Below, piece by piece: positions 50,637 through 54,753 of a DNA stretch of 64,000 nt. Origin of the DNA: Vineibacter terrae. Its GTDB lineage: Bacteria > Pseudomonadota > Alphaproteobacteria > Reyranellales > Reyranellaceae. The stretch is taken from positions 62,001-126,000 of the forward strand of contig NZ_VDUZ01000022.1 of the NCBI RefSeq assembly GCF_008039615.1. The letters are read 5' to 3'. The notes under the pieces were generated by a model, which did not search any database, was not told where the DNA came from, and worked only from the letters and a program-made list of their open reading frames with translations. The translations under genes and the position numbers were made by a program. Position 1 is the first letter of the stretch; each line of letters starts with the position of its first letter.

Positions 50637-51842
50637 ATGGCCGATCCGGTCAACATGAGCAACGGTAACCAGGGCGGCAATGAGGAGAGGAAGAGCAATA
50701 CCGGCCTGAAGGCTGTCGGCTTCGTTGCCGGCGGCATCCTGCTGCTGCTGATCGGTCTGGGGCTGGGCTGGTACTTCTTCTATCGCGTCCAGGTGAATGT
50801 CACGGTGCAGGCGCCGCCGCCGCCACCCGCGCCACCCGCGCCCAAGCCTGACCCGGCTGCGGTACGGGCGCTGGAGGACGCCCTGGAGAAGCAGAAGCAG
50901 AGCAACAAGGCGATCGAGGACCAGATCGCCAAGCTGCGTGAAGCCTTGCAGGGCAATGTCTGCACCATCACGGATCCGCGCGGGCTGGGCATCACCCCGC
51001 CCGGTCCCGGCGGCGGGCCCAGCGGCCCCCAGACGCCGGCGCCGACCACGCCCGGCTCCAAGAGCACGGGGCTCGACCCCAAGATCCCGGGGCGGCCCGA
51101 GATCAAGGCCGACCCTGGCCGGACCGAGGCCGGCCGGCAGGAGCCGCCGCCGCCGCCGACCGGCACGCTGGCCGATCTGGTGCCGGTGCTGGAAGGCGCC
51201 ACTGTCCTGATCCTTGCGCCAAAGACGCAGGGCCTGGGCACGGGCACCGGCTTCTTCGTCGGCCGCGATATCGTGCTGACCAACAACCATGTCGTGAACG
51301 ACCTTTCGGATGGGAAGGTCTACGTCACCAGCCGCAAGCTCGGCACCGTGCTGGAGGGCGAGGTCGTCGGCGCGATCGGCGGCGGCAACGCCGGCGGCGC
51401 CGACTTTGCCGTCGTGCGGGTCGAGCGGGTGCCGGCGCAGATCAAGCCGTTGGGCCTGGGAGTCGAGCCGGCGGCGCTCAAGGAGGTGGTGGCAGCGGGC
51501 TATCCCGGCGCCATCCTGCGCAACGACCGTAATTTTCTCGAGCTTCTCAAAGGCGACCCCAGCAAGGCCCCGGAGCTGGTGTTGACCAAGGGCGAGGTCA
51601 GCGCCGTCCAGAACCGCGACCGCGGCCTGCCGTCGATCGCCCACACCGCCTCGATATCATCGGGCAATTCCGGCGGTCCGCTGATCGACCGCTGCGGGCG
51701 CGTGGTCGGCATCAACACCTTCGTGACGCGCGCCGAAGCCGGACAGGGCGGTGGCTTCGCCATCGGCGCCACCGCCCTCTCCAGGTTCCTGCGCAGCAAC
51801 AACGTGTCGTTCGACTGGACCGAGGCCGCCTGCACCAAGTGA
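50637..51842 (+). CDS. Membrane-anchored trypsin-like serine protease
   Basis: 401 residues. Short cytoplasmic N-terminus, one membrane span (about 25-48), a Pro-rich linker (about 60-72), a short coiled coil (about 73-105), a long Pro/Gly linker (about 114-178), then a trypsin fold with H218 (TNNHVVND), D256 (GADFAVV) and S345 (SGNSGGPL). The protease faces the periplasm. No PDZ domain, unlike DegS/HtrA. The start at 50637 is fixed by the membrane segment; the ribosome-binding site is weak (ACGGGACG). Convergent with three leftward genes for coiled-coil lipoproteins and a SUMF1-like protein, also envelope components. Confidence 0.9.
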   Translation: MADPVNMSNGNQGGNEERKSNTGLKAVGFVAGGILLLLIGLGLGWYFFYRVQVNVTVQAPPPPPAPPAPKPDPAAVRALEDALEKQKQSNKAIEDQIAKLREALQGNVCTITDPRGLGITPPGPGGGPSGPQTPAPTTPGSKSTGLDPKIPGRPEIKADPGRTEAGRQEPPPPPTGTLADLVPVLEGATVLILAPKTQGLGTGTGFFVGRDIVLTNNHVVNDLSDGKVYVTSRKLGTVLEGEVVGAIGGGNAGGADFAVVRVERVPAQIKPLGLGVEPAALKEVVAAGYPGAILRNDRNFLELLKGDPSKAPELVLTKGEVSAVQNRDRGLPSIAHTASISSGNSGGPLIDRCGRVVGINTFVTRAEAGQGGGFAIGATALSRFLRSNNVSFDWTEAACTK

Positions 51843-51856
51843 GCCCTGCCGGCGCC

Positions 51857-52360
51857 CTATGATCGCGCGCCGGTCGCCTGGTCGATCGCCCGCTCCAGAA
51901 GCCGCTTGCGCTGGTTGAGCTCGTCCAGCCGACGCCGTTTCTCGGCGTCGGCCAAGGTCGGGTCGTTGTTCACCTGATTGCCCGAGGCCTGCAGCGCATC
52001 GAGGTCGGCGCTGAGGCGGCGCAGCTCGCCAAGATTCTGTCCCCGGGACGCCTCGGCGGAGGCGAGCTTGCCGCGCAGGCGCGCGATGTCGCTGCTGAGC
52101 GCTGCGTTCTGGCGCTGCAGCGCGGCGCGCTCGGAGGCGACCTGCTGGCGCTGGGCGCTAGCTTGCGCCGCATCAGCCTGAAGCTGCTGGTTGCGTTGCT
52201 GCTCGGCAGCCAGCGTGTCGCGGCGCTGCTGCGTCTGGCTTGCATACTTGCCGCTGCTGAGTCCGCTGACGCCGCCGAAGAAGCCGCCGCGGCTGGGGTC
52301 ATCGTCCGTGCAGGCCGTCACGCCGAGAAGGGCGGTGGCCACGAGGAACACCTTGCGCAT
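51857..52360 (-). CDS. Coiled-coil lipoprotein
   Basis: 167 residues. Signal peptide with lipobox LLGVTAC (lipidated C17), a short Gly/Ser-rich linker (SRGGFFGGVSGLSSGKYAS), then one long alpha-helical coiled coil (about 40-165) rich in Gln, Arg, Glu and Ala (EQQRNQQLQADAAQASAQRQ, RLRGKLASAEASRGQNLGE). No enzymatic motif. GGAGAC precedes the ATG at 52360. 20 nt downstream of another coiled-coil lipoprotein gene, so both helices may bundle with each other. Confidence 0.85.
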   Translation of the reverse strand: MRKVFLVATALLGVTACTDDDPSRGGFFGGVSGLSSGKYASQTQQRRDTLAAEQQRNQQLQADAAQASAQRQQVASERAALQRQNAALSSDIARLRGKLASAEASRGQNLGELRRLSADLDALQASGNQVNNDPTLADAEKRRRLDELNQRKRLLERAIDQATGARS

Positions 52361-53112: not shown

Positions 53113-53124
53113 GGCGAGCCTCCT

Positions 53125-54753
53125 TCAGGGCAGCGCGAGAATGTCCTTGAACCAGGCGTCGGGCTGCACGCCGGACGATTTCCGGTAGGCCGACACGTGT
53201 GCGGCGACCAGCCTGGCGTAGGGATCCAGGTGGCCGGCGCCGCTCTTCTCGAATTCGAGCTTCAGGGTGCCCAACTGCTGATTGACTGTCGAGTCGTTGA
53301 AGTCCTGCGCAATCTGCACCACGGTGTCGGCGTAGTAGCGCAAGTTGCCCTGCAAGGTTCCGTTGAGCTCCTTCAGCCGGGCGTCCAGCGCCGCCACGTT
53401 CAGGCCGGCCTGCTTTTGCGTGTCGCGGCTCTTCTGCACCTGGTCGAGGAAGCGGCGGTCGGCGCGAAGCTTGTCGCCGAGGAAGGCGGCCAGTCGCAGC
53501 AGGCTGCGGGCGGCGCGGCCGCGCATCGTCGCCTCCTCGTCGATGCGCTTGGCGTACTCGCGCTGCAGGGCCGCCAGCCGGACGCGGATATCGGCGTCGG
53601 TGGTGGCCTTGATGATGGTCTGCAGCTCGGCCAGCGGGTCGCCCTGAGCGACATCACCGGTGCGCAGCGCCTCGGCCTTGGGCAACGCTTCCCAGGCCTT
53701 CTTCGCGGCCTCCAGCCGGGCCGGCGAGGGGATCACGGGGGCCACCAGCGCGAGCCGGAAGCCGACGGTGGGCACCCGGCGCGGGCCGTTGGCGTCGAAC
53801 GGCAGCAGCTCGTTGCGGTAGGCCGACCGGACATCGGCTTCCGACGTCTGGTAGTTGCCGCCCTTGATCACGAAGCCGCCGGCCTGGCCGTGCAGGCGCG
53901 CCAGCTTGTTGAGCCGGAAGGGATCGAGCACGATCTCGTCGACGTTGCCCAGCATGTCATGCAGGCCCAGCGGATTGGGCTTGAGCGCGCCGACCAGCTG
54001 CAGCTCGCCGTTCGACGACCGCTGGCTGCGGAACCAGACATACTTCTCCATGCCGTCCGGCATCGGGAAGGTCTTCTCCTCGAACTCCGACGCCGACACC
54101 GCGACGCCGCCGCGGGCGGCGTATTCCCATTCCGCTTCGGTCGGCAGGCGCAGGAAGCCGGGCAGGCCGTCCTCGACCGGCAGCTTGTTCTTGGCGTTCT
54201 TCAGCAGCCACTCGGTATAGAGCTGCGCCGCCTGCACGGCATCGAACCACGTCGTGCCCGTCGCCGGCCGCAGGCCGGCCCGCTCCGGCGTGGCGCACGT
54301 GCCGGTGATCGCCTTGAGCTGCAGCTCCGTGATCTCGTACTTGGCGAGATAGTAGAAGCGGCGCGTCTTGTCCTTCGGGTCGCCGAAGGCGCCGTCGATA
54401 TAGTCGTAGCGGCTGCCTTCGGCGAAGGCGAACCGTTCGTCGGTGCCGCCGACCACGATCTTGCGGTCCGCCAGCGCCGATTCGTGCGGCACGTCGATGC
54501 GCCGGAACACCATGGCCCCGCCGCAGGGCAACGGCAGCACGAGGTCGCCGGGCGCCGGCTGGGGATTGTAGAAGCGCGCCTCCCAGCGCTGCGGCTGCGG
54601 CGCCGGCCCCGGCCGCGGCTGCCCAAGCGCCGGCGCCGCCAGCGCCAGCAGGGCTGCGGTGATGATCGCGGCTGATCGCCGGATGCCGCGCGATCGCGGT
54701 CCGATCGGCTGGCCCTGCGGCACGGCATCCCCCGGAACTGCTGGCTGACCCAT
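53125..54753 (-). CDS. Exported SUMF1/FGE-like protein with helical C-terminus
   Basis: About 542 residues. Signal peptide around RRSAAIITAALLALAAPALG. The formylglycine-generating-enzyme-like lectin fold has RLPTEAEWEYAARGG (near 205-220), LGLHDMLGNVDEIV and KGGNYQTSEADVRSAYR ending in PTVGFRLAL. The segment that holds the catalytic Cys pair in true FGE (CR.GGSW, with a second Cys in the following loop) has no Cys here, so it is probably a binding or regulatory member. The last about 180 residues are helical and coiled-coil-like (AALQREYAKRIDEEATMRGR). ATG 54753 chosen; ATG 54825 and GTG 54723 are alternatives. First gene of the leftward envelope operon. Confidence 0.8.
   Translation of the reverse strand: MGQPAVPGDAVPQGQPIGPRSRGIRRSAAIITAALLALAAPALGQPRPGPAPQPQRWEARFYNPQPAPGDLVLPLPCGGAMVFRRIDVPHESALADRKIVVGGTDERFAFAEGSRYDYIDGAFGDPKDKTRRFYYLAKYEITELQLKAITGTCATPERAGLRPATGTTWFDAVQAAQLYTEWLLKNAKNKLPVEDGLPGFLRLPTEAEWEYAARGGVAVSASEFEEKTFPMPDGMEKYVWFRSQRSSNGELQLVGALKPNPLGLHDMLGNVDEIVLDPFRLNKLARLHGQAGGFVIKGGNYQTSEADVRSAYRNELLPFDANGPRRVPTVGFRLALVAPVIPSPARLEAAKKAWEALPKAEALRTGDVAQGDPLAELQTIIKATTDADIRVRLAALQREYAKRIDEEATMRGRAARSLLRLAAFLGDKLRADRRFLDQVQKSRDTQKQAGLNVAALDARLKELNGTLQGNLRYYADTVVQIAQDFNDSTVNQQLGTLKLEFEKSGAGHLDPYARLVAAHVSAYRKSSGVQPDAWFKDILALP

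What the first reader, a model, noticed from the sequence alone, without database searches (positions are those of the whole stretch)
50637..54753. Four-gene envelope cluster: anchored protease, two coiled-coil lipoproteins, SUMF1-like protein
A membrane-anchored trypsin-fold protease without PDZ domain faces an operon encoding a SUMF1-like exported protein with helical tail, a glycine-zipper coiled-coil lipoprotein and a second coiled-coil lipoprotein. All four act outside the cytoplasm, and three carry predicted coiled coils that could bundle. SUMF1-like domains without the catalytic Cys often serve as ligand-binding modules. I know of no described system with this composition. A proteolytically regulated envelope sensor or assembly is conceivable.
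Basis: partly seen in the sequence, partly recalled or inferred. Interest (0 to 1): 0.68.

Follow-up and report, generated by a model that had tools for sequence, protein, structure and literature searches.

The report
Detached half of Srf-Tag envelope system
Four neighbouring genes for cell-envelope proteins turn out to be the sensor half, plus a membrane-anchored protease, of a widespread but unexplained bacterial machine (Srf-Tag), split off from the rest of its operon in this genome.

Summary
The four genes are real; their order recurs in 7 of 8 close relatives, the eighth cut by a contig end. They belong to a known gene neighbourhood. The SUMF1-like protein is a TagR, the glycine-zipper lipoprotein TagQ-like, and the third gene the small lipoprotein (LP2) after TagQ in srf operons: SrfB-SrfC-X-VWA-TagT-TagS-TagR-TagQ-LP2. 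This genome's srf operon stops after TagS and lies about 42 kb away, inferred from synteny. TagS and TagR coincide in 13 of 75 family genomes; the one other TagR genome has its srf contig cut. In 385 Alphaproteobacteria TagR and SrfC, 22 genomes each, share 18. The protease belongs too: its TM-coil-Cys module lies within 20 kb of SrfC in 35 of 71 carriers, proteases adjoin SrfA, and SrfA-trypsin fusions exist. TagQ-TagR is known from T6SS activation and Srf-tag clustering was published in 2013; protease and LP2 as parts, and the split, appear new. Mechanism, inferred: outer-membrane damage sensing with proteolytic output.

The parts
50637..51842 (+). Membrane-anchored trypsin-like protease (401 aa), Srf-associated
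   Evidence: Trypsin_2 residues 203-359; triad H218/D256/S345 invariant in 8 of 8 aligned sequences; homologues and SrfA fusions inside srf loci
50637..51000 (+). N-module of the protease: hydrophobic segment (about 26-45), Pro-rich linker, helical-looking stretch, GNVCTITDPRGL motif; a stand-alone gene near srf in many family genomes
   Evidence: motif recurs in SrfA-trypsin fusion L189 and in proteases L209/L210; related to SrfA TM-coil segment, hhalign prob 94%, E 1.2e-7
51243..51713 (+). Trypsin_2 domain
   Evidence: Pfam E 4.2e-22
51857..52360 (-). LP2, small helical-looking lipoprotein (167 aa), counterpart of the gene after TagQ in srf operons
   Evidence: hhalign window-type vs srf/tag-operon LP2 prob 99.5%, E 2.6e-22, covering the non-coil DP..GGFFGG..GL.SG.Y stretch; HMM from window-type LP2 only: 16 of 16 hits at E<0.01 among 9512 ORFs have TagQ as the preceding annotated gene, one of the 16 being itself a second TagQ
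52381..53112 (-). TagQ-like glycine-zipper lipoprotein (243 aa)
   Evidence: Best NCBIfam hit NF041250 VI_TagQ, 73 bits, E 2e-20, below the curated cut-off of 300; HMM from window-type TagQ only: TagR is the preceding annotated gene for 33 of 38 hits at E<0.01 (one a duplicate stretch, one about 6 kb away)
53125..54753 (-). TagR-like SUMF1-fold exported protein with helical C-terminal tail (542 aa)
   Evidence: relatives at 36-41% (best segment) in srf operons; tree places it with alphaproteobacterial srf-context TagRs 100/99
53749..54360 (-). SUMF1/FGE-sulfatase domain (residues 132-335)
   Evidence: Pfam E 4.5e-29
53137..53724 (-). Helical tail of TagR (residues 344-539)
   Evidence: AlphaFold2, block pLDDT 81-96 beyond residue 410; the 39 PDB matches at E<=0.001 are SUMF1-type proteins by name, none suggests a match for the tail

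Best explanation
The cluster is the envelope-sensing half (TagR, TagQ, LP2) plus a dedicated inner-membrane-anchored trypsin-like protease of the Srf-Tag system. The other half (SrfA x2, SrfB, SrfC, an X/Sel1 protein, a VWA protein, TagT, TagS) is encoded about 42 kb away. Supported by sequence, synteny and co-occurrence: identity of the parts, membership in one system, and derivation of the detached module from an srf operon. Inferred mechanism (about 35%): TagQ and LP2 sit in the outer membrane and hold TagR in the periplasm, as TagQ does for TagR in P. aeruginosa. Outer-membrane damage or contact changes TagR, which acts on the TagTS ABC complex and the kinase-less PpkA-like VWA protein. 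This signals to SrfA, SrfB (actin/Hsp70-like motifs) and SrfC (P-loop-like motif) at the inner membrane. The protease, tethered by a SrfA-like TM-coil module, is the periplasmic output or reset switch: when the sensor fires it cleaves a partner (TagR, VWA protein or SrfA are the candidates). In fusions the trypsin domain is carried by SrfA itself.
For: Operon order in Pseudomonas, Aggregatibacter and other Alphaproteobacteria. The own srf operon ends at TagS: no TagR, TagQ or LP2 in the 4 kb after it, and the genome has one strong TagR, the window's. Contig-end synteny with G002. TagS and TagR coincide: 13 of 13 TagS genomes among 75 carry TagR; the only TagR genome without TagS, G004, has its srf contig cut inside the VWA gene. 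TagR with SrfC: 18 shared of 22 and 22 among 385 genomes, Fisher 1.4e-23; without the own family 16 shared (20 TagR, 17 SrfC, n=380), 13 of these 16 with both genes on one contig within 6 kb. N-module above 90 bits in 71 of 75 family genomes, 38 on the SrfC contig, all 38 within 47 kb, 35 within 20 kb; at class level 8 of 385 genomes carry it at E<=1e-6 and all 8 have SrfC. SrfA-trypsin fusions L189, L198, L200 and partial L211; protease directly upstream of SrfA on the same strand in L209/L210; protease divergent from a SrfA pair in L179/L182. TagQ/TagR are needed for the T6SS response and TagQ for the response to outer-membrane damage in P. aeruginosa (PMC6657622 and PMC11881912, passages).
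Against: No functional data for Srf-Tag as a sensor; the protease substrate is unknown. No trypsin gene in 7 of 7 gammaproteobacterial srf loci fetched, and found in 6 of 15 non-family alphaproteobacterial SrfC stretches fetched, many of them cut short. In the family, 51 of 73 N-module places lie in open frames of at most 267 residues, too short for the trypsin domain, though some are cut by contig ends: proteolysis is optional. Two family genomes, G069 and G084, carry the N-module but gave no SrfC match. NF041250 TagQ score is far below the curated cut-off. LP2 was detected in only 16 of 24 srf-context TagR loci (two more weakly). Three of the 16 shared non-family genomes (G111, G145, G441) have SrfC and TagR on different contigs. 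Genomes are related, so counts are not independent events.
Confidence: 0.75

Rival explanations
1. TagR-TagQ serve the type VI secretion system of the same genome (TssC at G000:C9:140 kb) as in the threonine phosphorylation pathway of P. aeruginosa.
For: The genome has T6SS TssC genes; TagQRST is known to activate a T6SS; 11 of 22 TagR genomes have TssC, with 70 TssC genomes among 385, Fisher 4.5e-4.
Against: 11 of 22 TagR genomes gave no TssC match, against 18 of 22 with SrfC. G006 and G038 have TagR without TssC, G005 has TssC without TagR. No blast hit to the Tag or VWA references in the 32 kb around the own TssC genes (the PpkA kinase part was not a reference). The TagR tree groups the window protein with srf-context TagRs, away from PpkA-linked Pseudomonas TagRs. 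LP2 is found in 16 of 24 srf-context loci and in 0 of 6 Pseudomonas PpkA loci.
Confidence: 0.12
2. The protease is an independent envelope quality-control enzyme (DegS/HtrA-like) that only happens to lie beside TagR-TagQ-LP2.
For: Its trypsin domain matches HtrA/DegS/MarP models below their cut-offs, it is on the opposite strand, and two family genomes with the N-module gave no SrfC match (G069, G084).
Against: N-module and protease are tied to srf in several families: fusions to SrfA (L189, L198, L200, partial L211), directly upstream of SrfA (L209, L210), divergent from SrfA (L179, L182), and within 20 kb of SrfC in 35 of 71 carriers.
Confidence: 0.08
3. Srf-Tag is an export or delivery apparatus rather than a sensor; TagTS-TagR-TagQ form an export path and the protease matures a cargo.
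For: TagTS is MacB/Lol-like; one group reports SrfABC proteins of Xenorhabdus as cytotoxic to cultured cells (PMC6950479, abstract and outline only).
Against: SrfA shows a hydrophobic segment (read from sequence), SrfB actin/Hsp70-like motifs and SrfC a P-loop-like motif (pattern matches), which fit a resident machine better than cargo; I saw no constant cargo-like gene in the neighbourhoods, but made no systematic search for one.
Confidence: 0.2

Closest known systems
TagQRST-PpkA module of the H1-T6SS of Pseudomonas aeruginosa (threonine phosphorylation pathway)
   Same: Glycine-zipper lipoprotein (TagQ), SUMF1-fold TagR, ABC pair TagT/TagS and a VWA protein in one gene order; homologous by sequence to the Pseudomonas PpkA-type loci fetched
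   Different: No kinase domain found on the VWA protein, extra LP2 lipoprotein and protease, TagR/TagQ/LP2 detached, linked to SrfA/B/C instead of T6SS genes; TagQ model score 73 bits against cut-off 300
srf-tag gene neighbourhood of host-associated Deltaproteobacteria (2013 paper, PMC3608642, passages read)
   Same: srfABC with tagQ, ppkA, tagR, tagS, tagT and a 'Hap-like' neighbour in one neighbourhood of 10 genes
   Different: There one neighbourhood in host-associated bacteria; here two pieces, with a TM-anchored trypsin-like protease. Whether their Hap-like gene is a trypsin-type protein was not tested
SrfABC operon (Salmonella; 'SrfABC toxin' of Xenorhabdus)
   Same: The own genome has SrfA-family, SrfB and SrfC genes
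   Different: The Tag half and protease do not appear in the abstract read; a toxin role was not tested here
DegS / HtrA family
   Same: N-terminal membrane anchor and trypsin domain
   Different: No PDZ domain; conserved coil-Cys module shared with SrfA
FGE/SUMF1, PvdO, PorK/GldK, TvpA
   Same: SUMF1 fold (Foldseek E 1e-11 to 1e-8)
   Different: No FGE cysteine pair; own helical tail of about 200 residues

Membership tests
Srf-Tag system | TagR homologue of the srf-operon branch | tested here: met
   36-41% (best segment) to srf-operon TagRs; clade of 19 rows with alphaproteobacterial srf-context TagRs, support 100/99
Srf-Tag system | Order TagR-TagQ-LP2 | tested here: met
   Same order in the window and in srf operons where all three were detected
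Srf-Tag system | SrfB, SrfC, VWA, TagT, TagS present in the genome | tested here: met
   L133 = G000:C9:20000-39999; Pfam SrfB, Virul_Fac, VWA_2, ABC_tran, FtsX
Srf-Tag system | All genes in one operon | tested here: not met
   Split into two pieces about 42 kb apart by synteny; similar split in G009, G007 and G002, protease N-module to SrfC 26, 27 and 47 kb
T6SS TagQRST-PpkA pathway | Kinase (PpkA) and T6SS genes in the locus | tested here: not met
   VWA protein of the own srf operon has no kinase hit, the PpkA control L061 does; TssC is about 108 kb from the own SrfC on one contig
T6SS TagQRST-PpkA pathway | TagQ equivalog score NF041250 >= 300 | tested here: not met
   73 bits for the window protein, 500 for L061
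FGE / SUMF1 enzymes | Catalytic Cys pair near the C-terminal end of the domain (recalled) | tested here: not met
   Only Cys77 and Cys153
HtrA/DegS | Trypsin domain with H-D-S triad | tested here: met
HtrA/DegS | PDZ domain | tested here: not met
   No PDZ hit at E<=1
Srf-Tag system | Sensing function | not testable with these tools
   needs experiments

The most novel reading that the evidence does not exclude
Srf-Tag is a T6SS-independent envelope-damage response machine in which SrfA-type inner-membrane coils are a common scaffold for interchangeable outputs (VWA or trypsin), so that TagQ-TagR sensing is converted into regulated periplasmic proteolysis instead of kinase signalling. The window shows this sensor-plus-protease unit packaged alone.
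Probability: 0.35. Interest if true: 0.82.

Novelty: new variant of a known kind. Interest (0 to 1): 0.6.

Why it matters
The srf genes have been known since 2000 (as cited in PMC3608642) under the label 'virulence factor', and that 2013 paper called their function unclear. Finding the system, with a Tag-type sensor, in Alphaproteobacteria, with a protease that is sometimes fused to SrfA, gives a concrete and testable model: a damage sensor with proteolytic output, separate from T6SS. It also gives an identity to four envelope genes and shows that TagR need not imply T6SS: 11 of 22 TagR genomes gave no TssC match.

Tried and rejected
DGR target protein (SUMF1 folds are used there; recalled): not pursued beyond noting TvpA as best fold match; no reverse transcriptase search was run. 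T6SS regulator: tested and judged weaker than Srf membership. Plasmid-borne LP2: no match. Structure of the protease domain alone: unusable model, mean pLDDT 38.5, so the trypsin fold rests on Pfam. Literature: of the searches of the open PMC library (listings only, apart from the papers named) one search lists one paper, PMC3608642, that holds three of the terms TagR, TagQ, srfC and SrfA; subscription papers are not covered. First gene calls by codon bias missed or mis-called some genes; a six-frame scan replaced them. Limits of the surveys: genome searches scored only the best few candidates per genome (at most 3, 2, 11, 24, 17). The tree leaves out L140 (duplicate of L035), TagR matches under 200 bits and the paralogues L032 and L034; it warns of long branches and uneven composition, and two alphaproteobacterial kinase-linked TagRs fall on the srf side. 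In one search I counted only N-module matches above 90 bits; weaker ones, some of which lie on SrfA genes, were left out. Of 24 class-level TagR places, neighbourhoods of 22 were looked at; G232 and the G111 TagR place were not. The chance estimate ignores relatedness and is not used.
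Full report
WHAT IS THERE. The four ORFs exist as stated. The minus-strand genes are spaced 12 and 20 bases apart, and the protease converges on them with a 14-base gap. Pfam gives Trypsin_2, FGE-sulfatase and Gly-zipper, and no PDZ. The protease has an N-terminal hydrophobic stretch (best 19-mer from residue 26), H218/D256/S345 and three Cys (109, 353, 399). The SUMF1-like protein lacks the FGE cysteines (position of the pair recalled).

CONSERVATION. Strong homologues of the SUMF1-like protein occur in the three other genomes of the genus searched and in two more genera. 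In 7 of 8 of these relatives the order SUMF1, glycine zipper, LP2 and convergent protease is seen; in G011 it is cut by a contig end. A glycerophosphodiester phosphodiesterase-like gene (named by my reading of the sequence, not by a family search) lies directly upstream in 6 relatives and gave no significant hit in the window.

IDENTITY. The best NCBIfam match of the glycine-zipper lipoprotein is VI_TagQ (E 2e-20, 73 bits; cut-off 300). A genome scan found relatives of the SUMF1-like protein at 36-41% (best segment) in Pseudomonas, Pantoea, Aggregatibacter and Antarcticimicrobium. In Pseudomonas and Aggregatibacter they lie in operons SrfB-SrfC-X-VWA-TagT-TagS-TagR-TagQ-LP2-SrfA; in Pantoea and Antarcticimicrobium the order was seen up to TagR only. 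A second set in Pseudomonas at 30-32% lies in six PpkA(kinase+VWA)-TagT-TagS-TagR-TagQ loci in which no LP2 was detected (kinase domain checked by Pfam in L061). HMMs built only from window-type proteins were run on 9512 six-frame ORFs: for LP2, 16 of 16 hits at E<0.01 have TagQ as the preceding annotated gene (one hit is a second TagQ itself); for TagQ, 33 of 38 hits have TagR (one a duplicate stretch, one about 6 kb away). LP2 profile comparison: 99.5%, E 2.6e-22. LP2 was detected in 16 of 24 srf-context TagR loci, weakly in two more.

THE MISSING HALF. The same genome has SrfA, SrfA, SrfB, SrfC, X, VWA, TagT, TagS at C9:20000-39999, and after TagS a sugar-nucleotide dehydrogenase-like gene (my reading of its sequence) instead of TagR. 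The start of C9 and the end of C22 (the window's contig) align to adjacent places in G002, where cluster and operon are on one contig; so the two pieces are inferred to lie about 42 kb apart here.

CO-OCCURRENCE. In 75 family genomes SrfC is in 73, TagS in 13 (E<=1e-20), TagR in 14 (E<=1e-20): the same 13 plus G004, whose srf contig ends inside the VWA gene. In 385 Alphaproteobacteria TagR (E<=1e-30) is in 22, SrfC in 22, both in 18. Outside the family both are in 16, on one contig within 6 kb in 13 and on different contigs in G111, G145 and G441. SrfC-only: three family members, of which the G005 locus was read and holds the core srf genes only, and G379, whose contig ends inside TagS. TagR-only: G038, G108, G236, G333; in G108 and G333 one TagR lies beside a kinase-like gene and about 23-26 kb from TssC, that is, of T6SS type. 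TssC is in 70 of 385 and in 11 of the 22 TagR genomes, a weaker but real enrichment that I report against a pure Srf reading.

PHYLOGENY. In a 61-row TagR tree the window-type clade (8 rows, 99/96) with paralogues that lack most or all of the tail (4 rows) joins seven alphaproteobacterial rows, six of them in srf loci and one cut by its contig, at 100/99; Pseudomonas PpkA-linked TagRs lie elsewhere. Two alphaproteobacterial kinase-linked rows fall on the srf side with weak support; the program warns of long branches.

THE PROTEASE BELONGS. Its N-terminal 120 residues (hydrophobic segment, Pro-rich, helical-looking, NVCTI..P.G) are a module found above 90 bits in 71 of 75 family genomes, 38 of them on the SrfC contig (35 within 20 kb, all 38 within 47 kb). 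51 of 73 places have open frames of at most 267 residues, 22 of at least 386. Of 11 places fetched, trypsin follows in 6, is absent in 4 and one is cut by its contig. The four family genomes without the module are G065, G094, G098 and G089: the srf loci of the first two are of the full srf-tag type (L200, L197), G098 also has TagS, and G089 is 71% complete. Against the link, G069 and G084 have the module but no SrfC match. Outside the family, G243 and G339 have the protease directly upstream of SrfA on the same strand and G441 a SrfA-trypsin fusion cut by its contig; G188 and G454 have it divergent from two SrfA genes; G304 has a SrfA-trypsin fusion, as have G095 and G065 in the window's own family. 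The G304 fusion carries RDVCTIENPLGLP against GNVCTITDPRGLG in the window. In all, 6 of 15 non-family alphaproteobacterial SrfC stretches fetched hold a trypsin gene, many of these stretches being cut short, and 0 of 7 gammaproteobacterial ones. The module resembles the SrfA TM-coil segment (hhalign 94%, E 1.2e-7), a match that low complexity could inflate.

MECHANISM (inferred). In P. [quoted passage not shown]). By homology TagR-TagQ-LP2 should sense envelope damage. The outputs here are SrfA/B/C (SrfB with DVGNS and DIGGGTTD, SrfC with GPSQAGKS; pattern matches) and, via a SrfA-like tether, the protease. Substrate and trigger are unknown.

KNOWN OR NEW. The srf-tag neighbourhood was published in 2013 for host-associated Deltaproteobacteria, with a 'Hap-like' neighbour (PMC3608642, passages). 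In the searches of the open PMC library named in Tried and rejected, seen mostly as listings, I found no description of a SrfA-linked trypsin-like protease, of LP2, or of the split arrangement.

Noticed in passing
L021, L023, L024, L025, L026, L027; window 54825-55224: A glycerophosphodiester phosphodiesterase-like gene (my reading of the sequence) sits directly upstream of TagR in six relatives but was not found in the window.
   Followed up: partly
L029, L030, L031, L032, L033, L034: Second TagR-like genes lacking most or all of the helical tail in two related genera, with no srf/tag gene seen beside them; the 4 put in the tree form one clade, 100/100.
   Followed up: partly
L029:5825-7888: TagR paralogue with a C-terminal Cys-rich stretch resembling the 108-aa exported-looking protein encoded beside it.
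   Followed up: no
L197, L200: Two TagQ genes in tandem inside srf operons.
   Followed up: no
L198:16284-18932: SrfA-VWA-trypsin triple fusion.
   Followed up: partly
G038 (L036), G108:C2 (L194), G236 (L196): VWA-TagT-TagS-TagR-TagQ loci in which neither SrfC nor a kinase was detected: possibly a third context for the Tag module.
   Followed up: no
window 57591-58850: Urate oxidase N-terminal domain protein with a C-terminal cytochrome c-like stretch, next to malate synthase at 55748-57364.
   Followed up: no
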